Below are positions 5,454 to 31,247 of a stretch of 32,426 nt of DNA, one piece after another (position 1 is the first letter of the stretch; the number at the start of each line of letters is the position of its first letter). The stretch is from Ruminococcus sp. (GTDB lineage: Bacteria; Bacillota; Clostridia; Oscillospirales; Ruminococcaceae), in contig JAMPDU010000018.1 of assembly GCA_023665505.1 (NCBI GenBank), positions 1 through 32,426 of the forward strand, read 5' to 3'. The notes beneath the pieces are model-generated. The model did not search any database. It saw only the letters and a list, made by a program, of their open reading frames with translations, and was not told the origin of the DNA. A program made the position numbers and the translations under genes.

Positions 5454-6440
5454 CTATTTCCTCCATAGATGTTTATTTAATATTGCAGACGTTATAAATA
5501 AAGTGATAAGTTCAATTAAAGTTATAATTGTCAAAATCAATATTTCTACTGCAGAAACTTCAATAATCAAAAATATAACATTCGACAGAACCAGTGAAAT
5601 CACTATTGACAATAATCCGAATCCGCAAACAAATCTAAAATACGATTTATTCAGCCGTTTTTTCTCAAATCCCATCATTACAAGCCTTATAAAATTATAT
5701 GATATACTTTTTGTAAATAAAAAGGTACTCAAAATTGTAATTGTAATAAAAATAACTATGCAAACCGATAAATATGGCACAATATTTTTCAGCACCGCAA
5801 TTATTTCATCCTCACGATAAATAATGTCTTCCGGCATGCCATTTACAGAAAGTTCATCAATAGAGTCCTTTGTAAATGCAATGCTGTTATGTGTGACATT
5901 ATCGACATATTGCCCATCATAACCCATAATGATAATTCCATTGTTATAGCTCTTGTCTTTGGAAATCCTCACATTAGCCGTTTCAGGAATGATATATTCT
6001 ATGGAATACTCGTAAATACCACCATTAACAATGTGTTTTGAATATAATTTATCATTCAAATGCAAATCATAAAACTTAGCTAAATTTTTGGAAATTGCAA
6101 TGCCATACTCACTAAGTTTGTCCGCATTCCAATAAATTGAATCATCATATTGAGAATCTCTTGATTGCATAATAATATCAGCATTTAGCCCTGTTTGAGA
6201 ATCAGGGGATACGGCAAAGCTTATTCCGGCATTAAAACGGTAATAGTCATTTTCAAATGTAGGTTCTCTTGTAATTGCTGAATAAATATAATTTGATTGT
6301 ATAACAGAGTATAATTGCATGCAGTAACTTTTAACAGATATTAGCAAAAACAAGGCGAACAGAAACGAAATTACAATAAAAGTCAGCATAACAAATAGTA
6401 TTTTTTGCGGTTCTGTATGAAATGTCACACATTTTTTCAA
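5454..6440 (-). CDS. FtsX/MacB-like ABC transporter permease, second subunit
   Basis: A 328-residue membrane protein. One membrane segment near residues 13-37 is followed by a large extracytoplasmic domain (about 40-215) and three C-terminal segments (about 220-322). This 1+3 layout is that of FtsX/MacB-type permeases, which usually work as mechanotransmitters or exporters rather than importers. It starts with TTG at 6440, with AGGTG 7 nt upstream. The ATPase gene follows after 2 nt. Overall sequence is not close to a named transporter that I recognise. Confidence 0.75.
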   Translation of the reverse strand: MKKCVTFHTEPQKILFVMLTFIVISFLFALFLLISVKSYCMQLYSVIQSNYIYSAITREPTFENDYYRFNAGISFAVSPDSQTGLNADIIMQSRDSQYDDSIYWNADKLSEYGIAISKNLAKFYDLHLNDKLYSKHIVNGGIYEYSIEYIIPETANVRISKDKSYNNGIIIMGYDGQYVDNVTHNSIAFTKDSIDELSVNGMPEDIIYREDEIIAVLKNIVPYLSVCIVIFITITILSTFLFTKSISYNFIRLVMMGFEKKRLNKSYFRFVCGFGLLSIVISLVLSNVIFLIIEVSAVEILILTIITLIELITLFITSAILNKHLWRK

Positions 6441-6511: not shown

Positions 6512-7648
6512 TTAATTTTGATTAATCCCCTTAACCATAAATTTATTCATTATAAAGCTGAGCAATTCAGCTATCAGAACTACCGCAGGAATAACTGCAA
6601 CTTCAACGCCAATCATTGTATTGGGAATGTAATCAGATGAAGATTTTACTTTATAAAATAATATAATTGCATAAGCCACAGCAAAAACCAATAACTCACA
6701 AATAAATGAATATACATAGTAAGGCTTAACATTCTGCCCTTTTGGTATGCAGTGTTTAGTGAAGTACCCTTTTTCACAGCCACGACTTGACATAATAACA
6801 TTGTAAACAATAACTATTACGGCAAATATACCTGCACCTAACCAAATCATTAAGACACTTGCTTTTTTATCAAGGCTGTTCTCTCTTACACGAAAATCTG
6901 TAATTTCATTTGTATATCCGGATGACATAATTGCATCATAGTGAACTTGATACTGTTCGTCACTAGCAAATTGTTTACGAGCTTTTAGTCTGCCCAAAGG
7001 TCGATAATCTTTAGTCATGTATGTCTGACAAACAGCATAATTACTTGCAGATACATACATTCCCGAATACCCATTGTTTTGGGCATTTTGCACGATTAAA
7101 TCCTTTTGCTCGGTATTGAGCTGTGCAAGGATTGCTCCTCCTTCGTATATATTGTTTGTTTCATATATGGCATAAATTTTGTACTCTGCATTTGTACCGC
7201 CGATAGAAAAAAACACCGTATCACCTATATCTGCCGATGTATCATGACAGAATTGCCAATCAACAAGAATAGAATTATTGTATTCTAAAGATGATTTCTT
7301 TATAATACGACTGCTGTTATACATAGTTATATCAACGTTATCCAACCGGTCACTTAATAATATTGTTGTCGTGCGGGATACGCCGTTTACGGTTACCGAT
7401 GTCTTTGTCAAAAAGAACGGAAACACCTTATCTATCCCATGGACTCCCGACAATTCGTTTATTTGTTCAAACGACGGTTCAGGTGCGATAAAATCAATAT
7501 CTGTATTCTTATATATGCTCTGTGAATTATACATATCTGCCTGTTGATTGATAAATGGATACACCACCAGCAAAACTGACACCAAAGCAACAGTAACATC
7601 AAAAAGAAAAGAAAATAATAATCTATGCCTAATCCAATATCTTGTCAT
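6512..7648 (-). CDS. FtsX/MacB-like ABC transporter permease, first subunit
   Basis: A 378-residue membrane protein with an N-terminal segment (about residues 11-33), an extracytoplasmic domain of about 230 residues, and three C-terminal segments (about 266-370). This is the same 1+3 topology as the next gene, so the two probably form a heterodimer energised by the ATPase at 4687-5451. The motif GDTVFFSIGG with downstream YKIYAIYE resembles MacB-type periplasmic core domains. Its ATG overlaps the stop of the upstream lipoprotein gene by 4 nt (ATGA), pointing to coupled expression. Confidence 0.8.
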   Translation of the reverse strand: MTRYWIRHRLLFSFLFDVTVALVSVLLVVYPFINQQADMYNSQSIYKNTDIDFIAPEPSFEQINELSGVHGIDKVFPFFLTKTSVTVNGVSRTTTILLSDRLDNVDITMYNSSRIIKKSSLEYNNSILVDWQFCHDTSADIGDTVFFSIGGTNAEYKIYAIYETNNIYEGGAILAQLNTEQKDLIVQNAQNNGYSGMYVSASNYAVCQTYMTKDYRPLGRLKARKQFASDEQYQVHYDAIMSSGYTNEITDFRVRENSLDKKASVLMIWLGAGIFAVIVIVYNVIMSSRGCEKGYFTKHCIPKGQNVKPYYVYSFICELLVFAVAYAIILFYKVKSSSDYIPNTMIGVEVAVIPAVVLIAELLSFIMNKFMVKGINQN

Positions 7649-8163
7649 TCTTCATTTTCCTCCGTTTTGTCTGCCGCAGCTTCAACGAATATCAGCGTAC
7701 TCTGCTTATCATATGAAGGATCGACATTATCATCAAATATTAATGTCATCGGAACTTCTCCGACTGCATTCGGAACAAACTGGATAACGCACTCCTGGTC
7801 TGCTGTTTCCCTTGACGCGTTTGCGGTAAATTCATATGTTGTCACATTATTCACTGCGTCAAAATTCGGCGTAATAATCTGTCCGTCCATATACTTCGCA
7901 TCAACATTCTGAATGCTTGGAATTGTAAGAACGACTTTGACCTGTGAAATCTTTTTCTTATTTGAGGTAACCTTGAATTTTACTTTCATATACACAGTAT
8001 CACCGATTGCGTATTCCTTAGTACCGTCGCCGTATGTATGCCCCTTATCGCTGCTGTAGAAGAAACTTCCGTCCGCTAAATATGTTGTTTCTCCGCATCC
8101 TGTCAATGAACTCAGTACAAGTGCCATAGTCAGCAGAACCGTGAGTTTTTTAAATTTTTTCAT
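7645..8163 (-). CDS. Lipoprotein of the exporter cassette
   Basis: A 172-residue exported protein. The N-terminus has Lys residues, a hydrophobic core and the lipobox LTGC with Cys23, so it should be lipid-anchored on the outer face of the membrane. The mature part is rich in beta-strand-forming sequence (KVKFKVTSNKKKISQVKVVL) typical of an Ig-like sandwich and ends in an acidic tail. It lies 49 nt behind the immunity gene and overlaps the first permease gene by 4 nt. It may be the substrate-facing partner of the transporter. No named family is recognised. Confidence 0.8.
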   Translation of the reverse strand: MKKFKKLTVLLTMALVLSSLTGCGETTYLADGSFFYSSDKGHTYGDGTKEYAIGDTVYMKVKFKVTSNKKKISQVKVVLTIPSIQNVDAKYMDGQIITPNFDAVNNVTTYEFTANASRETADQECVIQFVPNAVGEVPMTLIFDDNVDPSYDKQSTLIFVEAAADKTEENEE

Positions 8164-8212: not shown

Positions 8213-8599
8213 TCAAAGAATTATATCCTGAATACCTACTGTAATTTCACCTTTTGAGGAAAAGACAACAGCCAATCCATGTTCCAAGTCATAACGATAC
8301 TTGCACATTAACGCAATTCGCGGGTGTTCTTTATCACGTTTCACAAAAATACATTCCGGCTTGATATAGCTGAATATGTTATCCTTTTTGACATTCTCCT
8401 CATCGTCCATTACTTGTTTTCGGCAAAATTCCTCAACATAGCTTTTGGAATTTGCAATCAATTCTGTATTAGAAACAAAACTGTTAAATGCGTCAATCTG
8501 TAAACTTGTTACAGTTTCTCCATCGTAGCAATCATAATCAACAGGAAGCGTAAATTTTCTTCCCCAAACATTTATATCCAATGACTCAATCAAAAACAT
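8213..8599 (-). CDS. DUF6985-type immunity protein
   Basis: A 128-residue cytoplasmic protein. The order YDGETVTSLQIDAFNSF, then a helical stretch, then LEHGLAVVFSSKGEITVGIQ followed by DIIL, is the pattern of DUF6985 proteins, which are common next to contact-dependent nuclease toxins. The gene starts inside the last codons of the toxin gene (14-nt overlap) with AGGAG just before ATG, the standard arrangement for toxin then immunity. It probably neutralises the nuclease domain encoded immediately upstream. Confidence 0.75.
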   Translation of the reverse strand: MFLIESLDINVWGRKFTLPVDYDCYDGETVTSLQIDAFNSFVSNTELIANSKSYVEEFCRKQVMDDEENVKKDNIFSYIKPECIFVKRDKEHPRIALMCKYRYDLEHGLAVVFSSKGEITVGIQDIIL

Positions 8600-10049
8600 C
8601 CTCTCCTTCCTGACCTATCATAGCGTTATACTCGGCAACACCGCCATAATGTTTAAATGTATCATTTACTTCATATGGTACTAATTGCATATATTCCATA
8701 TTGCTCATTTCATGCCAAGTAAAGTTATAACTTTTTATGTATGTTTCAACATCAGAAATACTCCAAGTTTTACCATTATGCTTTATTTTAGTCCAATATT
8801 CTGCAAGTACCTTATTTGCTTGCTTGAAGTTTCCGCCACTTCCTAATCTTTTATCAGTCATATTAGGTATTTTAACCTGCGCTTTCTGAAATTCTGAAAA
8901 ATCTGGAACTGCATTCTTATATGTACATCTTGTTATTTTTGTTCCGTCTTGAGAAACAATAGGTTCTTTTAGAACGAAGTCAGATTCGCCTACTTCGCCC
9001 GTCCATTCACCAATACCTTTTTTCATTGTTTTCACTTGTCGTAATCGCTTTTCGTAATTAGTGTATGGTGTATTATACTTATGATAATACTCATATCCCT
9101 CAGCACCACCATAAACTGTACCGATAATAGCACCCCACATGTAACCGTCTGCGGCATTCTCAATAACTTTTTCTGCTGCCGATACTCCAACCTTATCCCA
9201 ATCCACATTATTCCAGTCAATGTCGGCAGTATCTGTAGATGTGAAAGTTTTAACTGCATCATATCCTGCTTTGGCAGTTCCTGCTGTTGCAGCTAATGTT
9301 GATATTCCTGCAATTACCAACTTGATTCCTGCTGCCGCTGCAATGGTTGTGATTCCACCCGACGGAACAGCAGCCACCAAATGCACGATTGAAAGGATAA
9401 GCCCAGCTGTTGCTGCTGCAAATCCAATTACTGCCAATGTTCTACCTGTTTCATCAATTTCATCGGCTGCACCTGTCAGACCGCCGAATAAAGAGCCTAT
9501 CGCCGCACCGCTACCTGCAAATTTCAGTGATTCATCCGCCGCAGCAACAACTGCACTTGCTATGGGTTCAGGAAGTCCGATTTTATCCAAGACCACAACA
9601 GTAACAATTACACCTGTCCCAACGGCAACTTTGGTTAGAACGGATTTGAGATTTATACCTTCGCCGAAAAGGTGAGCGGTCTGGCTTTTTTCTGAGAAAT
9701 CATCTATGTTTTCCTGCGGAACATAAATGGTTTTACAACATATAACCTCGCTGATTGTTTCCTCTTCAAGAAACAGTTCAGAAATTTTATTTTCCGCAAC
9801 AACAATTTCCTGCAAATATATTTCAGCAGTAATGAATTCATGAAGTTCATTTTCGGTAATTACATTTTCCACTTCGATGTTCTCCGCAATGGTTTGAGGG
9901 TTGGCATCGGATATAGCAGGGGACGGTGGAGCATTGGAACAACCTGCCGTCATAAGTAAAATCGAAAAAACTAACATTAAAGAAATGATTCTCTCAATTT
10001 TAGTTTGTCTGAATATCAAGGACATTTGAATTTTTAACATTTTATACAT
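8586..10049 (-). CDS. Lipoprotein-like polymorphic toxin with HNH/endonuclease VII-like C-terminus
   Basis: 487 residues in three parts. The N-terminus is hydrophobic with a lipobox-like TAGC (Cys37), so it may be lipid-anchored; T at position -3 is not ideal. The middle (about 130-290) has several long hydrophobic, Gly/Ala-rich stretches that could span or enter a membrane. The C-terminus (about 347-475) matches nuclease toxins: WTGEVGES, then VPDFSEF, NFKQAN, FTWHE with H446 and E447, and FKHYGG with H467. Such domains cleave nucleic acid inside target cells. ATG at 10049 has AGGTG 7 nt upstream. A DUF6985 immunity gene overlaps the 3' end. I see no LXG, WXG100 or RHS delivery region, so the export route is unclear. 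Confidence 0.7.
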   Translation of the reverse strand: MYKMLKIQMSLIFRQTKIERIISLMLVFSILLMTAGCSNAPPSPAISDANPQTIAENIEVENVITENELHEFITAEIYLQEIVVAENKISELFLEEETISEVICCKTIYVPQENIDDFSEKSQTAHLFGEGINLKSVLTKVAVGTGVIVTVVVLDKIGLPEPIASAVVAAADESLKFAGSGAAIGSLFGGLTGAADEIDETGRTLAVIGFAAATAGLILSIVHLVAAVPSGGITTIAAAAGIKLVIAGISTLAATAGTAKAGYDAVKTFTSTDTADIDWNNVDWDKVGVSAAEKVIENAADGYMWGAIIGTVYGGAEGYEYYHKYNTPYTNYEKRLRQVKTMKKGIGEWTGEVGESDFVLKEPIVSQDGTKITRCTYKNAVPDFSEFQKAQVKIPNMTDKRLGSGGNFKQANKVLAEYWTKIKHNGKTWSISDVETYIKSYNFTWHEMSNMEYMQLVPYEVNDTFKHYGGVAEYNAMIGQEGEDVFD

Positions 10050-10492: not shown

Positions 10493-12421
10493 ATGTTTGA
10501 CAAATCCCGTTTAAAAGATGTTCTTATTAAATATAAGCAGGACTTTGTATCTGCAAATTGGAAAAGTGAAAAATATAAGTGGGAGGCAATAAAATGTTTT
10601 CAGGATAATTGGGATATAAAATCATCGGATTTTGCTGATATGCTCGCGCGTTCGCTCTCAAAAACAGCAAATTTGCTTGCGTCTGTTAATTATTTCCCGG
10701 CGCGAATGATTACGGATTTTGCCAAAATCGCTCCTGAGGAAGTCAAATCAATGTTCATTGCGCTTTTTGATGAGAACGATGATATTTATGAACGTATTAA
10801 TGCCTTTAAACTGAAATCCCAAATTCTTCTTGAAAAGTATGGGAACGGTGCAGGGTCGCATTATCAAACAGAAAACGCAATCAGTACATACCTATGGCTG
10901 CGTTTCCCGGACAAATATTATATTTATAAATTCAGCGAAATTAAAACAGTAGCTAACGAGTTGGGAAACGATTACAAATTCAAAAAAGGCGCTTATGCAG
11001 ACAATATCAGAAATTTTTATAAATTTTATGATGAAATCTGTAATGAACTGACGCGCGATATGGAACTTATAGGTCTTTTCAAAAATCAACTCACGGATAC
11101 TTGTTACCCTGATACAAAATTAAAAACGCTGACAATAGATGTTGGTTTTTACATCAGCCGTTATTATAATAAATGGTTTCCGACCGATTATGAACCGAAA
11201 TTAACTGTTGACGACTGGGTTCGGCTGCTTGCTGACAGTACGGTATTTACAAACGAAAGTCTTGAAATTATGAAACGTATGAAAGATTACGGCGGAGCAG
11301 CTACTTGTACTCAGCTTGCGGAAAAGTATGGAGAAAATTTTAATTTTTACAATAGCGGCTCCGTTGCGCTTGCACGCCGTGTTGCGGAGAAAACAAGCTG
11401 TCCGCTAATGAAACGGGAAGATGGTTCTCCAATTTGGTGGACGGTTCTTTACATAGGCAGAAATGCAAACAACGACGAAAACGGCAGCTATTTATGGAGG
11501 CTGCGTGACGAGCTTTCCGAGGCATTGGAAAAGGTTGATTTAAACAGCATTAATCTGTGCACAAATTTAGATACATATACAAAAGAGAATTTTCTTGAAG
11601 ATGTGTATATGAGCAAGGAAAAATACGAAAATCTTACAGCGGTTCTCAAAAATAAGAAAAATATTATTTTACAGGGCGCACCGGGTGTAGGAAAAACTTT
11701 TTCGGCAAAACGGCTGGCGTATTCAATAATGGGTGAAAAAGACGAAAGCCGAATTGAATTTGTGCAGTTTCATCAAAATTATTCTTATGAGGATTTTGTA
11801 ATGGGTTACAGACCGACAGACGACGGCTTTGAACTTAAATACGGAATTTTTTATCGCTTTTGTCAGAAAGCAGCAAGTCAGCCCGATAAAAAATATTTTT
11901 TTATTATTGATGAAATCAATCGCGGTAATATGAGTAAAATTTTCGGCGAACTTCTTATGCTGATAGAACGCGATTACAGAGATACAGAAGTTGCTCTTGC
12001 CTATAACGGATTGCCGTTTTCGGTACCAAAAAATATTTATATTATCGGTATGATGAATACCGCAGACCGCAGTCTTGCGATGATTGATTATGCGCTGCGG
12101 AGACGTTTCAGCTTTTTGGATGTTGAACCGGGATTTGATTCCGAGGGTTTTATTCGGTATCAAAATAATCTAAATAATGACGCTTTTAACGAATTAATTG
12201 CTAACATAAAGGAATTAAATAAAGAAATAGTTCTTGATAAATCTCTTGGAAAGGGTTTCTGCATTGGACACAGCTATTTTTGTAATTGTGTCAGCTGCAC
12301 AGACGAATGGCTGCGTTCAATTGTAGATTATGATATTCTTCCTACGCTCAGGGAATACTGGTTTGATAATGCAAATGAATTACAGCGTTGGGAAAATATT
12401 CTGCATGGTATATTTCAATGA
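10493..12421 (+). CDS. mcrB: McrB-type GTPase/ATPase of a type IV restriction system
   Basis: A 642-residue motor subunit that assembles on modified DNA and drives the McrC nuclease. The AAA+ domain begins near residue 380: Walker A GAPGVGKT at 395-402, Walker B FFIIDEINRG with D473 and E474, the McrB signature MMNTADRS at 520-527, and an arginine-rich LRRRF. The N-terminal 380 residues, which would recognise DNA, do not match the E. coli McrB domain that I know and are probably a different modified-base or sequence reader. ATG at 10493 has GGAGG upstream. The stop overlaps the mcrC start by 4 nt. Confidence 0.93.
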   Translation: MFDKSRLKDVLIKYKQDFVSANWKSEKYKWEAIKCFQDNWDIKSSDFADMLARSLSKTANLLASVNYFPARMITDFAKIAPEEVKSMFIALFDENDDIYERINAFKLKSQILLEKYGNGAGSHYQTENAISTYLWLRFPDKYYIYKFSEIKTVANELGNDYKFKKGAYADNIRNFYKFYDEICNELTRDMELIGLFKNQLTDTCYPDTKLKTLTIDVGFYISRYYNKWFPTDYEPKLTVDDWVRLLADSTVFTNESLEIMKRMKDYGGAATCTQLAEKYGENFNFYNSGSVALARRVAEKTSCPLMKREDGSPIWWTVLYIGRNANNDENGSYLWRLRDELSEALEKVDLNSINLCTNLDTYTKENFLEDVYMSKEKYENLTAVLKNKKNIILQGAPGVGKTFSAKRLAYSIMGEKDESRIEFVQFHQNYSYEDFVMGYRPTDDGFELKYGIFYRFCQKAASQPDKKYFFIIDEINRGNMSKIFGELLMLIERDYRDTEVALAYNGLPFSVPKNIYIIGMMNTADRSLAMIDYALRRRFSFLDVEPGFDSEGFIRYQNNLNNDAFNELIANIKELNKEIVLDKSLGKGFCIGHSYFCNCVSCTDEWLRSIVDYDILPTLREYWFDNANELQRWENILHGIFQ

Positions 12422-13476
12422 TAAAAGATAAAAGCATATTTATAAAAAATATCTATTATATGCTTTCCTACGCATTTACTGACTTGAAGCAAGGCGGGTA
12501 TGAAAGTGTTGCCGCAGAAAAATTTGAGAACTTGCATAATCTGTTTGCCGCAATTCTTGCTAAAGGTATCGGAAAACAATTAAAGCAGGGATTGTATCGT
12601 GAATATTCAAACTGTAAAGAAGATACTGCGGTTATGCGGGGAAAGATAGATATATCCGGCACGATTAAAAATCGTATTAACGGAAAACACGTATTGACCT
12701 GCGAATATGATGAGCTTTCGGAAAATAACTTGCTGAATATGATACTGAAAACAACGGTTATGCTTTTGCTGCAGTATGGAGATGTTGATGTAAAATACAA
12801 AACCGATTTAAAAAAAGAGATGTTGTTTTTCTCAAATGTTAATATGCTTGACCCGTCATCAATACGATGGACGTCAATTCGTTTTCGTCAGAACAACAGT
12901 ACCTACCAAATGCTTATAAACCTTTGCAGGCTTGTACTGGAGGGAATGCTGCTGACTACGGATAACGGAAAGTATAAATTAGCGTCGTTTATTGATGAGC
13001 AGCGAATGAACAGATTATATGAAAAATTTATTCTTGAATATTATATAAAAGAATGTCCGCAGGTTAAAGCTGCGGCATCGCGGATACCTTGGGCTTTGGA
13101 CGACAGAATGGAAACAATGCTGCCTGTTATGCAGAGTGATATTACGCTTTCACAAGGCAACAAAACGCTGATTATTGACGCGAAGTATTATACCCGTACA
13201 GTACAGACGCACTATGATGCACATACTTTACACTCTGCTAATTTGTATCAGATATTTACTTATGTTAAAAATAAAGATGCGGAGTTCGGTGATAAACAGC
13301 GCACTGTTTCAGGTATGCTTCTTTACGCAAAAACAGATGAAAGTATACAGCCCGATAATGTTTACCATATGAGCGGAAACCGCATAAGCGTTAAAACGCT
13401 GGATTTAAACAGCGATTTTTCGGAAATTTCAGCGCAGCTAAATGAGATTGTGAACGAGCATTTTAAGAATACATAG
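12418..13476 (+). CDS. mcrC: McrC-type nuclease subunit of a type IV restriction system
   Basis: A 352-residue partner of McrB. The C-terminal half carries a PD-(D/E)XK nuclease core: D241 in DITLSQGNK and the D254-x-K256 pair in LIIDAKYY. The upstream stretch FIDEQRMNRLYEKFILEYY is typical of McrC. The ATG overlaps the mcrB stop (ATGA), so translation is coupled; an in-frame start ten codons earlier lies inside mcrB and has no ribosome-binding site. The catalytic residues look intact, so the pair should be active against phage or plasmid DNA with modified bases. Confidence 0.93.
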   Translation: MIKDKSIFIKNIYYMLSYAFTDLKQGGYESVAAEKFENLHNLFAAILAKGIGKQLKQGLYREYSNCKEDTAVMRGKIDISGTIKNRINGKHVLTCEYDELSENNLLNMILKTTVMLLLQYGDVDVKYKTDLKKEMLFFSNVNMLDPSSIRWTSIRFRQNNSTYQMLINLCRLVLEGMLLTTDNGKYKLASFIDEQRMNRLYEKFILEYYIKECPQVKAAASRIPWALDDRMETMLPVMQSDITLSQGNKTLIIDAKYYTRTVQTHYDAHTLHSANLYQIFTYVKNKDAEFGDKQRTVSGMLLYAKTDESIQPDNVYHMSGNRISVKTLDLNSDFSEISAQLNEIVNEHFKNT

Positions 13477-13522: not shown

Positions 13523-14743
13523 CTAAAGCAATTCATTTTCAATAAAACTTTCCTGCTCAACCGTTATTTTTTCAAGTATAATTGCCGAAATTACATCATA
13601 AAATATTGTGTAATCGGGATTATTCAGCAGTTCTTTCAGCTTTAAAATATAATTATCATTTTTCTTTAATCCGTTTTTCTTATGTGAATTATATGCTGAA
13701 ATATCCATATTAAACGGCTGTAAGTTATTAATTATATTCTTTTTCAGTCTGACAAACATTTTAAATCCGCCGTAATCAATATCTCCCCAAAAACAAACAG
13801 GTATATTTGCCTTTGAACATAATTTGCTAAAAAACTCACCGCGCTGCGGACTGTAAAATCCGCCGTGATAAACAACCAATTCACGCTCATTTTTATTATT
13901 CAAGCAATATTCCGAATAGTTGGTTTTATTTTCAATAAATATAATCCTGTCAGTATCAAATATATCCGCTCTGCAAATATCCGATACGCATTCACTCGAA
14001 ATACAGGCTCCCTTTTTTATCGGGGAAAAATCAACAGTCCCATTATCAAATAAAATTTTTACATTTCCGCAAAATTCAAAAATTTCAGGCATCATAATAA
14101 TTCCTACTTGAGCGAGAGCTTCTCTGTCGCTTATTTCATCTGGATCAGACAAATCGGGCTCGAAATTCTTAATTACAGATACAACATATTGTTTTATTTC
14201 ACGCTCAAAATATTTTGAATCGCCGTAAACATTTACGCTGAAAGCCCGCATTGAAACGGATTTTCCACTTAACTTACTTATATTTACAAGGGCGTCTGTA
14301 AAATCGGTAATAAACTTATGACCGCCGTTCCATATTCCTGTAAGCTTATTACTTTTAACAATATTATCACGCGTTTGCAAAAAATAATCACATACCCAAC
14401 AGTGTTCTGTCTCATTTATTGCACTATCAATCAAGTCAATAACATAATTAATTTTACTGTTTTTATTTTCACGCCCGAGGTAACGATACGCTTTAGAAAC
14501 ATTGTCAATCGTAAGCCAAATTTTATCAATTATATAATTTTTCTGCACCCAGTCAAAATCAATATAATTCAGAGATTTTAAAGACAGCATATCATTTCTG
14601 AATATATTGTATTTATCGCTCTCAATATCGGGAATATTTATTTCCTTTTTATTGCATTTGATAAGAACTCTGCGGTTTGAGCCTTCTGTACGCACCTCAA
14701 ATTTATCGAGCAGTTTATTGAGTACAAGTGCCTTGTAATCCAT
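13523..14743 (-). CDS. jetD: Wadjet nuclease subunit JetD
   Basis: A 406-residue protein with a C-terminal Toprim-like nuclease domain (DUF2220 type): E271 in FIENKTNYSEY and the D321-x-D323 pair in FWGDIDYGGFKMF. In Wadjet systems this subunit cuts circular plasmid DNA after loop extrusion by the SMC-like JetABC complex. ATG at 14743 directly follows the JetC stop codon (TAA then ATG). All three acidic residues are present, so the nuclease should be active. Its 3' end faces mcrC across 46 nt. Confidence 0.9.
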   Translation of the reverse strand: MDYKALVLNKLLDKFEVRTEGSNRRVLIKCNKKEINIPDIESDKYNIFRNDMLSLKSLNYIDFDWVQKNYIIDKIWLTIDNVSKAYRYLGRENKNSKINYVIDLIDSAINETEHCWVCDYFLQTRDNIVKSNKLTGIWNGGHKFITDFTDALVNISKLSGKSVSMRAFSVNVYGDSKYFEREIKQYVVSVIKNFEPDLSDPDEISDREALAQVGIIMMPEIFEFCGNVKILFDNGTVDFSPIKKGACISSECVSDICRADIFDTDRIIFIENKTNYSEYCLNNKNERELVVYHGGFYSPQRGEFFSKLCSKANIPVCFWGDIDYGGFKMFVRLKKNIINNLQPFNMDISAYNSHKKNGLKKNDNYILKLKELLNNPDYTIFYDVISAIILEKITVEQESFIENELL

Positions 14744-17700
14744 TTATATTTCACCCATTTCTTTAGTCCATTCAATTACCGTTGACCTATATATACCGCC
14801 GTCAGCCTCCTTATAAACCAATAGGGTTTTATCGGAAACAGGCGCAACGTCTGCCGCTTTTTCGGGAGGAGAGCATATTATAGCCTGCAAACCGAATTTT
14901 CTTAAAAGCTTAACGCTTTCAATTATTCGTTCACCGTCCATTTTATTGAATGCTTCATCAAAAATAACTATTCTTGCCGTGTTTCCGTACTCATTGGTTA
15001 GATTGACTTTGTAAAGCTGTGCAAAGGATGCAAGAACAGCAACATAAAACGGCGTTTGGCTTTCGCCGCCCGACTTTGTGTACATAGATTTGGAAAACCT
15101 TTCCGTTCTGCCGTTGCTGTCGGTGGAAAGCAAATCAAAGGACAGATAAGTTTTATATTTGCTGAATTTCTCAACGCTTTTTGCCGTCTTACTCTCATCA
15201 TCGTCATAGCTTACAATTTGCGCGAATAAATTATCAATCACGCTCTTATATTTTTCGGTAAATTCATAGCTGAATAAGCCGACATTTCCGTTATCAAGAA
15301 GCGGCGACATTATCATATTGTAATATTCCAAATATGCAGGATTAGGCTTTACTTCAAACCTGTATTTATCATTTCCGAACCATGTCATTTTTAGAGCATT
15401 GTTTAAATCGTCAATTTTTTCGTATGCAGTAGAAATATTCGACCTGAGCTTATATAAAAAGTCGCTTTTAAACTGCTCCATAGCGTCATTTTTAGCCTTT
15501 TCAATACGCTCCTTATATTTGGGAATTTCATAGTCCTTTATTTGCTGATATGCACTTTCATACTCGTCATTATCCGAAACGTCCGAGACCTTAAAAGACA
15601 TATGCTCTTGTGTATTATATTCGCTTCTTTTGTCCCTGAGTATATTTTCCTGCAAAGTTATTTTAGACATAGTGCCTTTTATCGGAGAAATAAACTTTTT
15701 AGCAACCATTTCAGGACTTCCGCAATCCGACAACTCGGAATTATATCTCGGTATCCCCTCGCTGTTTTTGAAATCGACAGTATAATCGTCATTGATTTTC
15801 TGACCCGATATTTTTATATTATTCTCCAAATCAGGTATTATTTTTTGAACCGTATCTTCTTTTTCACGAGTAAAATTTAGAATATAATTAGACGTTTTTT
15901 CTTTCTCTTTATGTGCGGCAGTAATTGCAGTATTTTTTTCGTTAATCTTCTTTTCCATTTCTTCTATCCAAAAGAAATCAATTTTATCAAGCAACTGCTG
16001 AATTTTTTCAAGCTCCCGTTCCGCATCGTTTTTATATTGATATGTATCAAACGCGGATTTTACCGTAGAATTAATGTACTTATCATTCAAATCCCATTCT
16101 GTTGAAACCGTTGGGACAATCGCGTCATGCTTTTGAATTTTTTCGTTTAATTCTTCAGTAATTTCCTCTAAAATCCTTGTTTTATTTTCAATTTGTTTTT
16201 CAATGGAATTTCTTCCGATATAAGGGTTGCGGTACGCGTCCTGGTTAAGAGACTTTACCGAAAAATTGTTGTACAGCATACACTCTCTCGTTACAGAAGT
16301 TCTGAAATCACGTAGCTTATCATCGCTGTAACAACGCGTGACTTTCCCAAGAAGATAATTTACATATGCCTGAACATATTCATCATCACTTTTAACAACT
16401 TCTGCCAAACTATTTGGAACAAGTTTGCTGTTGTATTCATATACCTTTTCCAAATCCACAACCGCATATTCATATATATTTCCGTCAGCCCTGACTTTTT
16501 TGTAAATTTCATACGCATCCATAAAATACTGCGGCGGAACAATAATATTCATACGCTGAGTGTTGAAATACCCCTCAACAGCATTGTGCCATTCCTCGTC
16601 AGTTACCTCAACCAAATCTGCAAGGAAATCCACCGGAACAGTTTTATTATACTTTTCCTTCAGTCCGTCTGAAATTGCCTTTTTAAGCTTTTCCGCTTTT
16701 GAGGGATACGGCTTTATTCCCTGTTTCAATGCGTTTATTTGATTTCTTAATTCCGAAGAATTATTTTTAAGTTCATCTATTTCATTTTTCAGATGATTTA
16801 AAACAGGTTCAATAAATTTTTCCAATTCATAATATGCTTCCCTTATTTTTGAAAAATAATTATGCGAAAGCTGTTCAAAATCTTTTTCGGAAAATTTTTC
16901 TGTCCTGCTTAAAAATTTTTCTGTGTTTTCAACAGCCATAATTATTTCATTGTTATCACATACAGACTTTAATTTTTTAAGTATCTCCAACCATTGTACC
17001 GACATTGTTTTTACAGTTAAAATAAATTTTTCAAGAGATTTTTCATACTTTTCAATATCATTTTTGAAACGGCTTTCATCTTCCTCCAGCCTGTCAACAC
17101 TATTATTGACCCTATACAGCAGAATGTCCTCGTTAAGCTTGCTTTTTTCGCTTTCAAGAGCGGAAATTAATTTTTCAAGTTCGGTATATTTATTATTTAA
17201 TTCTGCAATATTGGTTTCATATTGCTTTAAATCGGCATTTGCTTTTTCAAGCTGTAAAAGATAATCATTATATGTGCCGTAATCAATTAAAAACTGCTGT
17301 ATATTGTAGAGTGAACGCAGTTTCTCAATTTTAGAAAAAACGTCGCAAATATCAAAAAGTTTTTCAAGCTTGCTTTCAAATCTTGCGGCAATTTCCTCCT
17401 GTTGCTTGTAATAAAGAATATTTTCCTGCATAGCGATAATGTCAATATCATCTTCAATATCGCACACGTTTTCCGTTATAAATTTTTCAATATCATTTAT
17501 CGGCTCAAAAGAAATTGCTTTTTTAAGCATCGGAACAAATTTTTCATCAAGAATACTAAGCCTTTGAAGAACTATTTTCCTGTACGCCTCACCCGTATCT
17601 TTGGTTTCATATTTGTTAGGGTAATTTTCTTTAAAAAACTGCGTCATTCTGCGGCTGTCCATAGTTTTTCCGTTTTCAATAAATCTGCATTCGGGAATTC

Positions 17701-18103
17701 TGTCTCTTAAATAAAAGAAACGCTTATTTATTTCACTTCCGTCGGAAAAGCTGTCAAATACTGCGCCGAAACAAAAATACACGGACTTTAAATCGTCATA
17801 AAATTCCGCTACGATATATGTGCTGAAATCTTTTCCCTCTCTGACGCTTTTATTGCCGCTGTCAATATCTTCCCCCATTGAACCCTCAAGATAGCTTTTC
17901 AGCGTTCTTTCAGACTTTTTCCCCGCCGCTCTGTTAAAAGTCGTACTTCTTGTTTCACCCATAAGAACTACTTGCAAAGCGTCAATTATCGTCGATTTGC
18001 CCGCTGAATTTTTCCCCGTAAGAAAATTGATTGTATCGAAATCAATCGTTGTGTTTTGAAAAAAGTGCCAGTTAATAAGCAATAGCCTCGTCAGCTTTTT
18101 CAT
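14744..18103 (-). CDS. jetC: Wadjet SMC-like ATPase JetC
   Basis: A 1119-residue SMC/Rad50-like motor. It has Walker A GKNSAGKST at residues 30-38, long Glu/Lys/Asn-rich coiled-coil arms (about 240-470 and 650-900) around a hinge region, then an ABC signature SGGESQ near 1011 and Walker B IVIFDEAF with D1049 and E1050. ATG at 18103 has GGAGG 9 nt upstream and overlaps the JetB gene by 32 nt. It extrudes DNA loops and senses small circular DNA as part of JetABC. Confidence 0.95.
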   Translation of the reverse strand: MKKLTRLLLINWHFFQNTTIDFDTINFLTGKNSAGKSTIIDALQVVLMGETRSTTFNRAAGKKSERTLKSYLEGSMGEDIDSGNKSVREGKDFSTYIVAEFYDDLKSVYFCFGAVFDSFSDGSEINKRFFYLRDRIPECRFIENGKTMDSRRMTQFFKENYPNKYETKDTGEAYRKIVLQRLSILDEKFVPMLKKAISFEPINDIEKFITENVCDIEDDIDIIAMQENILYYKQQEEIAARFESKLEKLFDICDVFSKIEKLRSLYNIQQFLIDYGTYNDYLLQLEKANADLKQYETNIAELNNKYTELEKLISALESEKSKLNEDILLYRVNNSVDRLEEDESRFKNDIEKYEKSLEKFILTVKTMSVQWLEILKKLKSVCDNNEIIMAVENTEKFLSRTEKFSEKDFEQLSHNYFSKIREAYYELEKFIEPVLNHLKNEIDELKNNSSELRNQINALKQGIKPYPSKAEKLKKAISDGLKEKYNKTVPVDFLADLVEVTDEEWHNAVEGYFNTQRMNIIVPPQYFMDAYEIYKKVRADGNIYEYAVVDLEKVYEYNSKLVPNSLAEVVKSDDEYVQAYVNYLLGKVTRCYSDDKLRDFRTSVTRECMLYNNFSVKSLNQDAYRNPYIGRNSIEKQIENKTRILEEITEELNEKIQKHDAIVPTVSTEWDLNDKYINSTVKSAFDTYQYKNDAERELEKIQQLLDKIDFFWIEEMEKKINEKNTAITAAHKEKEKTSNYILNFTREKEDTVQKIIPDLENNIKISGQKINDDYTVDFKNSEGIPRYNSELSDCGSPEMVAKKFISPIKGTMSKITLQENILRDKRSEYNTQEHMSFKVSDVSDNDEYESAYQQIKDYEIPKYKERIEKAKNDAMEQFKSDFLYKLRSNISTAYEKIDDLNNALKMTWFGNDKYRFEVKPNPAYLEYYNMIMSPLLDNGNVGLFSYEFTEKYKSVIDNLFAQIVSYDDDESKTAKSVEKFSKYKTYLSFDLLSTDSNGRTERFSKSMYTKSGGESQTPFYVAVLASFAQLYKVNLTNEYGNTARIVIFDEAFNKMDGERIIESVKLLRKFGLQAIICSPPEKAADVAPVSDKTLLVYKEADGGIYRSTVIEWTKEMGEI

Positions 18104-18707
18104 TTTCAGATTCCTCCGTTTCATTTTTTAACATATCGCATATTGCTTTGCATCTTTCATTGGAAACCGCAATAAGTACAGACGGCAAAATCATAAATCT
18201 GCACTCAAAATCATCATAGCTTTCATCAATTTTTCTTATAAGATTATGCAATTCCAAAATTCTGAAAGCCTCCTTAATTTCTTTCTGCGGCGGCTTTTTC
18301 TTATAAACGGAAAATTCATTTACTATTTTTCCGAATAATTCTCCCACCGAAGAACACACGTCATTTGTGCCGCCGACCCGAGCGCGGTGCTCCTCATAAA
18401 TTATCCGTATCGTTGCAAGCATTACCGTGGTAAGCTTATTCATAACAAGTTTATTGTACCCCTCCGTATTTCTGACATAAATAATTCCGTACTGGCTTTC
18501 CTTATATATTTTCCAACCGCTTAATTCAAGATAATCATAAAATAATTCAAACTTATCTTCAATATAGCGATATTCCTTTGAAACACGCCTGTCCGCGGTT
18601 TCTCTGAGAATATAAGTTACCGACAAAAGCATATTGCAGATACGGGAAAATTCATCTCTTTCTTTTTGTGACATTTCCGCAAGTTCATTTAAATTCCGCA
18701 TATCCAT
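18072..18707 (-). CDS. jetB: Wadjet subunit JetB (MukE-like)
   Basis: A 211-residue winged-helix protein of the DUF4194 type, the MukE-like kite subunit of the Wadjet condensin. The pattern IIYVRN, then KLTTVMLATIRIIYEEHRAR, then a C-terminal AFRILELHNLI helix fits the family, and the length is normal. ATG at 18707 directly follows the JetA stop, and the C-terminus (acidic Glu-rich tail) overlaps JetC. It should bridge JetA and the JetC heads. Confidence 0.88.
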   Translation of the reverse strand: MDMRNLNELAEMSQKERDEFSRICNMLLSVTYILRETADRRVSKEYRYIEDKFELFYDYLELSGWKIYKESQYGIIYVRNTEGYNKLVMNKLTTVMLATIRIIYEEHRARVGGTNDVCSSVGELFGKIVNEFSVYKKKPPQKEIKEAFRILELHNLIRKIDESYDDFECRFMILPSVLIAVSNERCKAICDMLKNETEESENEKADEAIAY

Positions 18708-20102
18708 TTATTTTCGCCTCCTGTATGTCATAAGCGGTATTTCATATTTTTCCGATTTAACAAATTCCTTTGAAACATTTATCTTGTATCTCGAATTTCT
18801 CTCATTTGCCTGCACAACCGAAAGCAAAGTCATAATGTAAGTATCATCGTCTTTTATTTCAATGTCTGCCGTTGATATTTCATTTTTATTTTCAAGAAGC
18901 TTGTCCACAAAAGCCGCCACATTTTGTTTGCTGTACTTATTATTCATTATCTGCAAAGCCATTGCCTTTGCTTTTACTTCAAAATCCACAGGACATTCTG
19001 TCATAATCAGTTCGGAATTTCTATCTCTTTTAACCGATTTTTTTCTTGAATACAACCCATCTTCGCTGACAAAAGACAGTTCATACAATTCAAATGAATC
19101 CTCCAGCAAACCGCAAACTCTTTCTGAGTATTTATCATCTGAAATGTATTTTAAAAGCGAAATAAGATTACCCTTAACCGTCCTGTCGGAATTTATAAGA
19201 TAATCTATTTTCTGCGTGGTAGCCCGTGTGTACTGACGGTTTTTATTATCAATTACGCTTATAAAATCCTTTTCCAAATTATCGTATGTATCAATAATAT
19301 AATATATCTTTTTCAAAATATCTGTTCTGCATTCATCTTCGTCTGCTTTTTGATTTGATACGGTATATCTGACCATTTCCTCAACAGCATTTTCGTCAAC
19401 AATCCACTTTTTCAATATAAGCTGTATCGGAATTTTATATTTGGGAACAGAATCTTTAATTTTCAGCGGTTTCAAAATCGGCGCAACAATTTCCTCCTGA
19501 AATCTTTCATAATGAGATTGAAGAACATTATTTACGTTAAGCGTATCAATCAGCTGCTGATTATAATACGTTATACTGTGATATACGGATTTAAGGCTTT
19601 CAACAAGCTTTTCAGTCCTGTCCGCTCCGTCATTGAGAGCAGTTATCATTTCGTATGCGTCACGCGTATCATCTGCGTTTTTCAATGACGAATACGTTGA
19701 ATAAACATAGGCGAAATTTTCAGTTTCCGAAACGTTGGATATATCATAAAGAAGCTGTATAATTTTATAACTGAATCCCGGAACGGTAACATATTCCTTA
19801 AAATCACTTTCGGTTTCAATCAATATCCAACCGACATTTTTTAACCTGCGAACCAAGAAGTGCGCTTTGCCCGACATTGAATATTCATTTTCAAGAAGTT
19901 CCTCTTCAGAAAAATCAGCTGAAATAATATCATCGTCCAGCTTTGATATTATCATCGAAATAAGCTCGTCCTTTGATATTTTCAAATGCTGTTTGAACGC
20001 TTCCAAAATCACAAATAATGTTTTGACATACAGGCTTTTATTTTTTGAAACCAAAACAGTAAATAGGTTTTCGGGTATCACGTTGTACAAATTCAAAAAC
20101 AT
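18708..20102 (-). CDS. jetA: Wadjet subunit JetA (kleisin, MukF-like)
   Basis: A 464-residue largely helical protein starting MFLNLYNVIPENLFTVLVS. The N-terminal winged-helix part, the long central helical bundle and the C-terminal winged helix match the DUF5716-like JetA of clostridial Wadjet systems rather than the DUF3375 form, so the system is probably type II. ATG at 20102 is preferred over the TTG-type start five codons earlier because AAGGGAAG precedes it. It is the kleisin that closes the JetC ring. It begins 29 nt after the helicase gene. Confidence 0.85.
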   Translation of the reverse strand: MFLNLYNVIPENLFTVLVSKNKSLYVKTLFVILEAFKQHLKISKDELISMIISKLDDDIISADFSEEELLENEYSMSGKAHFLVRRLKNVGWILIETESDFKEYVTVPGFSYKIIQLLYDISNVSETENFAYVYSTYSSLKNADDTRDAYEMITALNDGADRTEKLVESLKSVYHSITYYNQQLIDTLNVNNVLQSHYERFQEEIVAPILKPLKIKDSVPKYKIPIQLILKKWIVDENAVEEMVRYTVSNQKADEDECRTDILKKIYYIIDTYDNLEKDFISVIDNKNRQYTRATTQKIDYLINSDRTVKGNLISLLKYISDDKYSERVCGLLEDSFELYELSFVSEDGLYSRKKSVKRDRNSELIMTECPVDFEVKAKAMALQIMNNKYSKQNVAAFVDKLLENKNEISTADIEIKDDDTYIMTLLSVVQANERNSRYKINVSKEFVKSEKYEIPLMTYRRRK

Positions 20103-20131
20103 CACTTCCCTTCTCAATATCGGAAAAAATT

Positions 20132-22405
20132 TTATTTCGCAAATCTTTTATAATATTCCTCAAGCTTTTTGTCGCATATATTCCCTATCTCATCTTTTTC
20201 AAGCTTGGAAAGATTTCTCCATACTGTCGGTTCTACCTCAATAATTCCCAAAGTCTTTGTATGCCTCAGCATCTGCATATCCTCAAACCGTCTAAACGGA
20301 TTTAAAAGTATATTGCGCTGCGCGTCTTTATCCGTATATCCGCCCTTGGCAAAAATGCTGTTTGATTTTTCAACAACCAAACCTGCGTTTCTCCTGCCCT
20401 CATAATATTTCTTGAAATAGTCAGCAATATCGTCTATCCTAACCCGTCCCTTTTCGTCTGCGCCTTCAAGTATTGATTTTATTAAAACAGGTTTATATGA
20501 ATAACTCATATCCATTTGACGTATCATTTCCATAAACAAATCTTTTCTGTTGCTGTCATTTATAATACGCCAGCCAAACTTTTCGGCAGACTTATTAAGC
20601 GTATCCTCCGAAAAATATTTGAATACCCTATGCTCGCTCATCGGGGCTGTCAAATCGGGAATTATTTCTCCCTCGCGTATGTATTTTTCAACCGTTTCGG
20701 CAGCGGCGTCAACCCTGCGTATAAATTCCATCTGCGAAATCATTCCGGCGGCTTCCTCCTGCCAATTAAAAACGTCGACCGTTTCATAATCCGCAACGCT
20801 TACCGGAAAATCTACAATTGCCTCAGGCTTTTCACCTCTTGAATAAAGCTCGTCGTCAGCTTTAAACTGTTCTCTTGTGCCCAATACCAGCTTGCCCGGT
20901 CTGTATTCGGAAAGTCTGAAAAGCCTGTGCATTGAATACGGCATATTATACTGACTTGCGTTATCAACAAAATCAAAAACTATAAGACATTCCTTGCCGT
21001 CTGCAAGTCTCATTCCGCGACCAAGCTGCTGAGTATACAGAACCTTTGACATTGTGGGACGCGCCATAAACAAAACCTCAGTTTCGGGACAGTCCCAGCC
21101 CTCGTTCAGCAAATCGCAGGCGCATAACGCTTTTATCTCACCGCTTTGAAATTTAGCAAGATATTCCCTACGCTCCGAGGTTTTCATACTTCCCGAAACC
21201 GCACATGCGCGCACACCCCTGTCATTTATCATTTCGGCAATTTCTTCAGCATGCTTAACGCTTGCACAGAAAATTACCGTGCGCTTATTGCTTGAGTATT
21301 CCATAAAAACATCAACAATAAGCTTGTTTCTTTCCGGAACGAAAATTTTGCTTTCAAGGTCGCGGATATTATACTGAACGCTGTTAAAACGAACCTTTGT
21401 CAAATCAATGTTGGTATGTATCCTTATGCACCTTACCGGAACAAGCTCGCCAATTTCAACCGCTGTCTGAATATCGAGCTTGTGCGCCGTATTTTTAAAA
21501 ATATCAATAATATTTTTATCATCTGCACGCTCCGGAGTTGCGGTAAGTCCGAGAGTGAATTCGGGCGCAAAATAAGAAAGCACCTTTTGGTACGTTTCCG
21601 CCGAAGCGTGATGCGCCTCATCAATAATGATATAACCGAAATCGTTTTCTTTAAACATATCAAGGTTGAGAGCCACGCTTTGAATACTTCCGCAGACGAT
21701 ATATGTGTCCGGCTGTTTTACAGAATCATAGAAACGCCCCACATCTACATCTTTCCAAAGTTCGCTGAATGTCTGTACTGCCTGTTCCACAAGCTCGCGG
21801 GTATGTGCAACAAAAAGAGTCCTTTTGCCGAAACGTTTTGCGTCCGATACGGCAGTAACTGTTTTTCCCGTCCCCGTAGCATGATAAAGCAAAGCTATGG
21901 TTTCGCGGTTTTTTCTCATATTCTCAAGAGAAACAAGAGCTTGATACTGATGCTCTTTTAGTGAAAAATTCTGTCCGTCGATAGCCTTGCCGCGCTGTTC
22001 GGGAAGATATTCAGCCGCGTCTCTGAACGCTGTGTTTCTGCCGACAAAAACACGCAGCTCATCTTTTACCGTATCGGGCTGGTTCTGCATCTGTCTCACA
22101 GCCCAGCGGAACACGTCCCAGCCAAGATTGACCATACTGTTTTGTTTAAGCAAATCGTCATAAAATTTGTTATCGGAAATAATATTTTTATTGTGTGAAG
22201 CTTCATCATCAATCTCAAAAGCAATTTTTCTCGCGCCGCATTCAAGATAAAAATCCGCAAACCTGTCATTCTGATATATATCGTAAAAATGATACTGCGA
22301 ATACAAAAATCCTGCCTTTTCCGCTCCGAAAGCGTCACTGAAAAGCTCTATAAATAAGTTCTCTGCCTCACTTCCGGAAACAGAATGATATTTTGATTCA
22401 ATCAT
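20132..22405 (-). CDS. Nuclease-helicase fusion: PD-(D/E)XK domain plus DEAH-box SF2 helicase
   Basis: 757 residues. The N-terminus (about 10-120) resembles DUF559/Vsr-like restriction nucleases: D51 in RFADFYLE, E64-x-D66 in FEIDDEASHN, and a WDVFRW strand. The helicase follows with ATGTGKT at 176-182, DEAH at 262-265, TAT at 288-290, and QQLGRGMR in the second RecA domain. A C-terminal region of about 200 residues is unassigned. Such proteins occur in restriction and defence islands. It is co-directional with MazG-like (30 nt before) and JetA (29 nt after), so it may be an accessory to Wadjet or an independent defence gene. Confidence 0.85.
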   Translation of the reverse strand: MIESKYHSVSGSEAENLFIELFSDAFGAEKAGFLYSQYHFYDIYQNDRFADFYLECGARKIAFEIDDEASHNKNIISDNKFYDDLLKQNSMVNLGWDVFRWAVRQMQNQPDTVKDELRVFVGRNTAFRDAAEYLPEQRGKAIDGQNFSLKEHQYQALVSLENMRKNRETIALLYHATGTGKTVTAVSDAKRFGKRTLFVAHTRELVEQAVQTFSELWKDVDVGRFYDSVKQPDTYIVCGSIQSVALNLDMFKENDFGYIIIDEAHHASAETYQKVLSYFAPEFTLGLTATPERADDKNIIDIFKNTAHKLDIQTAVEIGELVPVRCIRIHTNIDLTKVRFNSVQYNIRDLESKIFVPERNKLIVDVFMEYSSNKRTVIFCASVKHAEEIAEMINDRGVRACAVSGSMKTSERREYLAKFQSGEIKALCACDLLNEGWDCPETEVLFMARPTMSKVLYTQQLGRGMRLADGKECLIVFDFVDNASQYNMPYSMHRLFRLSEYRPGKLVLGTREQFKADDELYSRGEKPEAIVDFPVSVADYETVDVFNWQEEAAGMISQMEFIRRVDAAAETVEKYIREGEIIPDLTAPMSEHRVFKYFSEDTLNKSAEKFGWRIINDSNRKDLFMEMIRQMDMSYSYKPVLIKSILEGADEKGRVRIDDIADYFKKYYEGRRNAGLVVEKSNSIFAKGGYTDKDAQRNILLNPFRRFEDMQMLRHTKTLGIIEVEPTVWRNLSKLEKDEIGNICDKKLEEYYKRFAK

Positions 22406-30632: not shown

Positions 30633-30689
30633 ATGAAAATTCTAAATAAAGAGGGGGTGAAAATGTGGTTTTATACAAGCCTAAAATAG
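30633..30689 (+). CDS. Possible 18-aa leader peptide
   Basis: A short frame (MKILNKEGVKMWFYTSLK) with AAAGGA upstream of its ATG. Its codons contain the GAGGGGGT that serves as ribosome-binding site for the next gene, which it overlaps, so translating ribosomes would open or occlude that site. It may be a coupling peptide or chance. Confidence 0.35.
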   Translation: MKILNKEGVKMWFYTSLK

Positions 30690-31234
30690 TTAAAAACGCC
30701 TGCAAAGCCACAATTGAGCTGGTAGAAAACTACACCTTTTCCGACAACACGAACCGCAGCCGCCTTTATCATTTGATAAAGCTCGCACGCTCATCTGCAA
30801 AAGACTTCATCGACACTGACAGAGAGCTTAACGAAATGTTCGACACTCTCGGCATGTATGCTGCAAAACTGAAACGAAATCCCGACGTAAAAATTATACA
30901 GGTTCAATACGTTCTGACTTGCGTTAATACCAAATTCTCGACGCTTATTCCAATGCCAATTTCCAACGCTCATTTCGCGCTTATCAAGCTTATTCGGCAA
31001 AGTTTGAAAGACAAAACTACAGACAATTATGTGCGACTTCACGACGTAACCAACTTGTATGTTCAAAGGCTTTTTCGATATTGCGACTGGGTGAACGCTC
31101 ACCGTGAAATTGAAAATTACGAATTAATAAGCGGATTTTTGTTGATTTTTGTCGCCGAAATACGTCAGCATACGGGTTGGCTTGAAAGTGCTATGAAGTT
31201 CAACGGCATTGCTTACGAAAAAATTCTTATGTAA
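30665..31234 (+). CDS. Hypothetical helical protein, paralogue A
   Basis: A 189-residue soluble protein, apparently all helical, starting with GTG at 30665 behind a strong GAGGGGGT ribosome-binding site. It contains KIVKNACKATIEL, LYHLIKLARSSAKDFIDTD and MFDTLGMYAAKLKR, all shared with the downstream gene at 31324. I do not recognise the family. The setting beside SpoVG and short leader frames suggests a mobile element or plasmid gene. Confidence 0.75.
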   Translation: MVLYKPKIVKNACKATIELVENYTFSDNTNRSRLYHLIKLARSSAKDFIDTDRELNEMFDTLGMYAAKLKRNPDVKIIQVQYVLTCVNTKFSTLIPMPISNAHFALIKLIRQSLKDKTTDNYVRLHDVTNLYVQRLFRYCDWVNAHREIENYELISGFLLIFVAEIRQHTGWLESAMKFNGIAYEKILM

Positions 31235-31247
31235 AGGAGTTGAGAAC

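What the first reader, a model, noticed from the sequence alone, without database searches (positions are those of the whole stretch)
8586..10049. Toxin with an unusual N-terminus: lipobox plus long Gly/Ala-rich hydrophobic stretches
Between Cys37 and the nuclease lie several hydrophobic blocks (for example VAVGTGVIVTVVVL and the Ala-rich run after residue 200) of the kind seen in pore-forming or membrane-translocation domains. This suggests the protein may carry its own entry device rather than a secretion-system adaptor.
Basis: partly seen in the sequence, partly recalled or inferred. Interest (0 to 1): 0.6.

Follow-up and report, generated by a model that had tools for sequence, protein, structure and literature searches.

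The report
Lipoprotein-anchored nuclease toxin with Lol-like transporter
A gut-type clostridial bacterium makes a DNA-cutting toxin that appears to be tethered by a lipid to its own cell surface; the front half is a reusable delivery module that relatives join to other toxins, and it travels with its own ABC transporter resembling the machine Gram-negative bacteria use to pull lipoproteins out of membranes.

Summary
The gene is real (minus strand, 8586-10049, 487 aa). Its end is a WHH/Colicin-DNase HNH nuclease, followed by an overlapping DUF6985 immunity gene. The lipobox and hydrophobic blocks hold in all 11 orthologues. So this is a constant trafficking module with polymorphic C-termini; no Pfam or NCBIfam model covers it. 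Two things go beyond the finding. (1) The toxin heads a conserved six-gene operon: toxin, immunity, small lipoprotein, two MacB/LolC-type permeases, ABC ATPase. The predicted permease fold matches LolC/LolE and YknZ. DUF6985 follows the nuclease even where the N-terminus differs; the transporter follows the lipoprotein N-terminus even where the immunity gene differs. (2) Relatives with other nucleases lack the transporter but carry an upstream type-I surface protein. The genome is monoderm with LspA and no T7SS EssC above cut-off. I read it as a new delivery variant of polymorphic toxins: Sec-exported, lipid-anchored, probably contact-delivered. Whether the transporter releases the toxin or protects the producer is open.

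The parts
8586..10049 (-). Lipoprotein toxin (487 aa): signal/lipobox with Cys37; acidic conserved region about 55-125; hydrophobic Gly/Ala block about 134-320; WHH/Colicin-DNase HNH nuclease about 372-475
9939..10022 (-). Signal peptide and lipobox (about residues 10-37, Cys37 codon at 9939-9941)
9088..9650 (-). Hydrophobic Gly/Ala-rich block, GTGVI ... DGYMWG..G...GG (about residues 134-320)
8625..8936 (-). HNH nuclease domain, WHE...QLVP.E(V/I)N...H.GG motif (about residues 372-475)
   Evidence: Pfam PF12639 E 2.5e-12 and PF14414 E 1.7e-9; modelled with pLDDT about 93
8213..8599 (-). DUF6985 immunity gene, overlaps the toxin by 14 nt, RBS GGAGAGG
   Evidence: PF22481 E 4.4e-9; 11/11 orthologues; also beside the same nuclease type on unrelated N-termini
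7645..8163 (-). Small predicted lipoprotein (CL2), 172 aa, RBS AGGAG
   Evidence: 11/11 orthologues and L068, L102
6512..7648 (-). LolC/MacB-type permease 1 (CL3): TM1, extracellular domain of about 230 aa, TM2-4; overlaps CL2 by 4 nt
   Evidence: Foldseek to LolC/LolE/YknZ/MacB
5454..6440 (-). Permease 2 (CL4): TM1, extracellular domain, C-terminal TM helices
4687..5466 (-). ABC ATPase (CL5), intact Walker A GENGIGKS, signature FSGGEQ, Walker B DEP; overlaps CL4 by 13 nt
   Evidence: PF00005 E 2e-20

Best explanation
A polymorphic antibacterial toxin with a delivery mode not described in the held literature. The protein is exported by Sec, lipidated at Cys37 and cut by LspA, so it sits on the outer leaflet of the producer's single membrane (inferred from sequence). 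The constant N-terminal module (lipid anchor, acidic region, hydrophobic Gly/Ala helical block) handles trafficking; on contact or after release the hydrophobic block is proposed to insert into the neighbour's membrane and help the C-terminal HNH nuclease reach the cytoplasm, where it cuts nucleic acid (inferred). DUF6985 protects the producer (inferred from linkage). The co-operonic ABC transporter (two LolC/MacB-type half-permeases, one ATPase, one small lipoprotein) is proposed to act on the lipoprotein toxin at the membrane, most likely lifting it out as LolCDE does (about 40%), otherwise clearing it from the producer's membrane as self-protection (about 30%). Shown: modularity, the operon, nuclease-linked immunity, N-terminus-linked transporter, permease family. 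Not shown: lipidation, export, killing, translocation, substrate.
For: Lipobox in 23/23 members; LspA present, no Omp85, no EssC above cut-off. Nuclease: PF12639 and PF14414. Modularity: family profile search, profile-profile probability 97.3%, E 1.6e-11 between the two N-terminal clades, different ends, second copy with an LHH-like end and SUKH immunity in the same genome. Operon: immunity 11/11, CL2 11/11, CL3 10/11; the full CL2-CL5 set in 8 of 9 loci where sequence extends far enough. Transporter-side search of 279 family genomes: four strong CL3 hits, three with the toxin upstream and one whose contig starts inside CL2; one more in another family (L068). Double dissociation: DUF6985 beside the same nuclease on unrelated N-termini (L004-L007, L009), CL2 not seen in those loci; CL2-CL5 with a different immunity gene in L102 and L068. 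Fold: 7mdx LolCDE E 1.3e-7, 5f9q YknZ E 6.4e-7, 5udf LolE E 6.8e-7.
Against: No experiment. One orthologue (L017) has toxin, immunity and a divergent CL2 but no CL3 nearby or elsewhere in its genome, so the transporter is dispensable or replaceable. Clade B lipoprotein toxins do without it. The ATPase is not specifically LolD-like by sequence, and the LolC match is equally a MacB/YknZ match. The permease model rests on 5 sequences (pLDDT 59 overall, confident only in the extracellular domain). The hydrophobic block has no confident fold. L057 and L018 lack the Cys in the CL2 signal. CL2-CL5 has been seen only with WHH-type ends, so a link to the nuclease class is not fully excluded. Flanks of L004, L005 and L007 are only about 1 kb.
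Confidence: 0.55

Rival explanations
1. Same lipoprotein toxin, but the ABC transporter plus small lipoprotein is a second line of self-protection that expels the toxin's hydrophobic part from the producer's membrane, as YknWXYZ does for SDP and LanFEG/LanI for lantibiotics.
For: The same gene kinds (lipoprotein, two permeases, ATPase); the YknZ extracellular domain is among the top fold matches; YknWXYZ protects against SDP (PMC4887032). LanFEG/LanI is from general knowledge.
Against: Clade B toxins with the same hydrophobic block have no such transporter. LanFEG permeases are of a different type (general knowledge).
Confidence: 0.3
2. The hydrophobic block is only a membrane anchor or packing domain; the toxin reaches neighbours after proteolytic release and uses target-cell proteins to enter, as proposed for SitA escort domains.
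For: SitA toxins need target-cell envelope proteins specific to the escort domain (PMC8546572); no confident fold for the block.
Against: Related blocks recur just upstream of PT-HINT in other toxins, suggesting a common function near the toxin end.
Confidence: 0.25
3. The toxin is exported by a type VII system and the lipobox is incidental.
For: A related nuclease end sits on a long helical N-terminus plus HINT in L006.
Against: Lipobox in 23/23 members; only an FtsK-like match below cut-off for EssC in the genome.
Confidence: 0.05
4. An intracellular defence or toxin-antitoxin module: the locus lies beside McrBC-like genes and a Wadjet operon.
For: Defence genes at 10493-13476 and 13523-20117.
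Against: Secretion signal and lipobox; polymorphic ends and immunity partners typical of secreted toxins; no PADLOC match for the toxin, immunity protein, CL2 or the two permeases.
Confidence: 0.05

Closest known systems
SitA lipoprotein toxins of Myxococcus (PMC5562445, PMC8546572)
   Same: Lipobox, conserved N-terminal region (SitA escort domain about 375 aa; here about 330), polymorphic C-terminal nucleases, paired immunity genes.
   Different: SitA toxins move by TraA/B outer-membrane exchange between diderm cells. This genome has no Omp85, and the partners are an ABC transporter or a surface protein. I made no sequence comparison with SitA proteins.
APD1/APD2 lipobox effectors of Amoebophilus and MafB/MafA of Neisseria (PMC3482391)
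   Same: Lipid-anchored constant N-terminus, or lipoprotein partner, with polymorphic C-termini.
   Different: Lineage-specific domains in Gram-negative bacteria, with no linked ABC transporter described in the passages read; here the hosts are clostridia.
WHH / Colicin-DNase HNH toxins (PF14414, PF12639)
   Same: Nuclease domain and motif.
   Different: A WHE sub-type (third position N or H); known carriers use T2SS, T5SS, T6SS, T7SS and other adaptors (PMC3482391, Tox-WHH row).
LolCDE / MacB / YknWXYZ type VII ABC transporters (PMC5985334, PMC8333309)
   Same: 4-TM permease with large extracellular domain between TM1 and TM2; two different half-permeases plus separate ATPase as in LolCDE; best fold matches LolC/LolE/YknZ.
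   Different: Found in a monoderm, in a toxin operon, with an extra lipoprotein; no LolA/LolB counterpart identified; ATPase not LolD-specific.

Membership tests
Polymorphic toxin system | Constant N-terminal region joined to different C-terminal toxin domains | tested here: met
Polymorphic toxin system | Cognate immunity gene next to the toxin and tracking the toxin domain | tested here: met
   DUF6985 in 11/11 and beside the same nuclease on other N-termini; SUKH beside LHH ends
WHH/Colicin-DNase HNH nuclease | Pfam model above gathering score and conserved catalytic motif | tested here: met
   47.9 and 37.7 bits against cut-offs of 25 and 25.1; W-H-E, N, H invariant in orthologues
Bacterial lipoprotein | Lipobox Cys after a Sec signal, with Lgt/LspA in the genome | tested here: met
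   PS51257-type pattern in 23/23; LspA present. The stricter pattern fails for the window copy; Lgt not searched; lipidation itself not testable
Type VII (MacB/LolC) ABC transporter | 4-TM topology with large domain between TM1 and TM2, and MacB/LolC extracellular fold | tested here: met
   no Pfam FtsX/MacB hit for the window permeases, sub-threshold MacB_PCD in L068
LolCDE | Extracts lipoproteins from the membrane | not testable with these tools
   Inferred from operon context only
SitA family | Host with TraA/B outer-membrane exchange | tested here: not met
   No Omp85 in the genome, so no outer membrane is expected; TraA/B not searched
T7SS (LXG/WXG) toxin | LXG/WXG N-terminus and EssC-type ATPase | tested here: not met
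   No such domain in the toxin; EssC model only below cut-off
Pore-forming or translocation domain | Membrane insertion and pore fold | tested here: inconclusive
   Hydrophobic beyond chance but no confident model or significant fold match

The most novel reading that the evidence does not exclude
In single-membrane bacteria a dedicated LolCDE-like ABC transporter lifts membrane-anchored toxin lipoproteins from the producer's surface and hands them, perhaps via the small lipoprotein, to neighbouring cells: a lipoprotein-based toxin delivery system.
Probability: 0.3. Interest if true: 0.85.

Novelty: new variant of a known kind. Interest (0 to 1): 0.62.

Why it matters
Polymorphic toxins of monoderm bacteria are mostly discussed in terms of type VII secretion or large wall-associated proteins. 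A lipid-anchored class with a constant module, two alternative partner systems and a Lol-type transporter would add a delivery route among gut Clostridia, and would suggest lipoprotein extraction outside diderms. It is directly testable by gene deletion.

Tried and rejected
Viral contigs with profile A1: no relative. Phage and plasmid tblastn with the N-terminus: none; PHROGs: none. Most weak N-terminal hits match only the signal and lipobox; the three examined are other lipoproteins (GH26, PnrA-like, DUF3048) and such hits were discarded. L075/L084 and L076/L085 match the N-terminal module but end where the toxin would start and look truncated. Whole-toxin Foldseek gave nothing significant because most of the model is low confidence. 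PDB sequence search of the permease: none. The ATPase could not be assigned to the LolD subfamily. Weak CL3 hits on long ORFs match only part of the extracellular domain and were not counted. The CL5-like hit in L084 lies on the other strand and was judged unrelated.

Full report
Observation. The stretch 8586-10049 is a minus-strand gene for 487 aa. It has a basic n-region, a hydrophobic segment and a lipobox with Cys37, then an acidic conserved region, a long Gly/Ala-rich hydrophobic region and a C-terminal nuclease. The lipobox pattern would arise in 1.4% of shuffles of the first 60 residues, but it occurs in 23 of 23 family members, and the Cys is invariant among nine aligned orthologues. 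The window copy has Thr at -3 and fails the stricter Gram-positive pattern; close and distant relatives with canonical boxes support the assignment. Hydrophobic windows exceed shuffles (32 against 5.7, P = 0.0014).

Toxin and immunity. The end matches Colicin-DNase (PF12639, E 2.5e-12) and WHH (PF14414, E 1.7e-9) above their cut-offs; the W-H-E...N...H residues are invariant in orthologues, and this part is modelled confidently. A DUF6985 gene overlaps the toxin's 3' end. It is present in 11 of 11 orthologous loci and also lies beside the same nuclease type on unrelated N-termini (L004, L005, L006, L007, L009), as an immunity gene should.

The N-terminus is a module. A profile of the N-terminal region searched against 398 family genomes found distant lipoproteins with the same order of parts; the two clades align with hhalign probability 97.3%, E 1.6e-11. 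Their C-termini differ: LHH nuclease (PF14411), a PD-(D/E)XK-like end by motif (L051, L055; no Pfam match, so inferred) and, on a more divergent N-terminus, GHH (PF15636). The window's own genome carries a second member, G000:C187, with an LHH-like end and a SUKH immunity gene. Related hydrophobic blocks, including the terminal DG(Y/F)M-type motif, also precede PT-HINT domains in L066 and L067, so the block is a more general pre-toxin element.

The operon. Downstream of the toxin and immunity genes lie a small predicted lipoprotein, two permeases and an ABC ATPase, co-directional, with 4-nt and 13-nt overlaps. The lipoprotein is in 11/11 orthologous loci, permease 1 in 10/11, and the full set in 8 of the 9 loci where sequence extends far enough; L017 is the exception, and its genome has no permease-1 homologue elsewhere. 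Searching from the transporter side in 279 genomes gave four strong hits: three with a lipoprotein WHH toxin upstream, one at a contig edge. Two distant cases (L102, same family; L068, another family) have a different immunity gene but keep the order toxin, immunity, lipoprotein, permeases, with the ATPase following in L102. So immunity follows the nuclease while the transporter follows the lipoprotein N-terminus. The limit is that all transporter-linked toxins seen so far have WHH-type ends.

What the transporter is. Both permeases show TM1, a large extracellular domain, then C-terminal TM helices. The model of permease 1 (confident only in the extracellular domain) matches LolCDE (E 1.3e-7), the YknZ extracellular domain, LolE and MacB. 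Two distinct half-permeases with a separate ATPase is the LolCDE arrangement (PMC5985334). The ATPase sequence itself is not LolD-specific.

The other branch. Clade B toxins lack the transporter; instead all nine loci carry, immediately upstream, a secreted protein with a C-terminal TM helix, often after a Ser/Thr-rich stalk. The more divergent L086 carries a related upstream protein (blastp E 2e-20). Four other genomes with a clade A toxin have no relative of this protein.

Mechanism. The genome is monoderm by the absence of Omp85, has LspA and lacks EssC above cut-off. I infer Sec export, lipid anchoring on the producer's surface, contact-dependent or short-range delivery, help from the hydrophobic block in crossing the target membrane, and nuclease action in the cytoplasm. 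The transporter most likely handles the lipoprotein at the membrane, either releasing it (about 40%) or clearing it for self-protection (about 30%), for which YknWXYZ is the precedent (PMC4887032).

Known relatives. The nearest analogue is SitA of Myxococcus (PMC5562445, PMC8546572): lipoprotein toxins with constant escort domains and polymorphic nucleases, but moved by outer-membrane exchange. Zhang et al. 2012 (PMC3482391) describe lipobox prodomains in Amoebophilus. I found no account of such toxins in Clostridia, or of a linked Lol-type transporter, in the library; subscription papers are not covered.

Verdict. Observation confirmed; interpretation partly supported; a new delivery variant of a known kind of system, interest 0.62.

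Noticed in passing
13523-20117: A complete Wadjet type I operon, JetA-JetB-JetC-JetD, on the minus strand (PADLOC).
   Followed up: partly
10493-13476: McrB-like AAA_5 protein and McrBC component divergent from the toxin operon; a homologous pair also sits next to a clade B lipoprotein toxin in L051, suggesting shared defence or conflict islands.
   Followed up: partly
20132-22405: Helicase-nuclease resembling type IV restriction enzyme models in PADLOC, next to a MazG-like gene.
   Followed up: no
30665-31887: Two tandem paralogous genes of about 188 aa, all-helical by eye, with no Pfam match, upstream of a SpoVG homologue at 32031-32336.
   Followed up: no
L075/L084 and L076/L085: N-terminal lipoprotein modules that stop where the toxin would begin, still with the upstream surface-protein gene: possibly truncated or orphan donors.
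   Followed up: no
L102:4195-4671: The gene in the immunity position of the L102 operon resembles a beta-helix fragment (weak, sub-threshold M26/pectate-lyase-like matches), an unusual immunity candidate.
   Followed up: no
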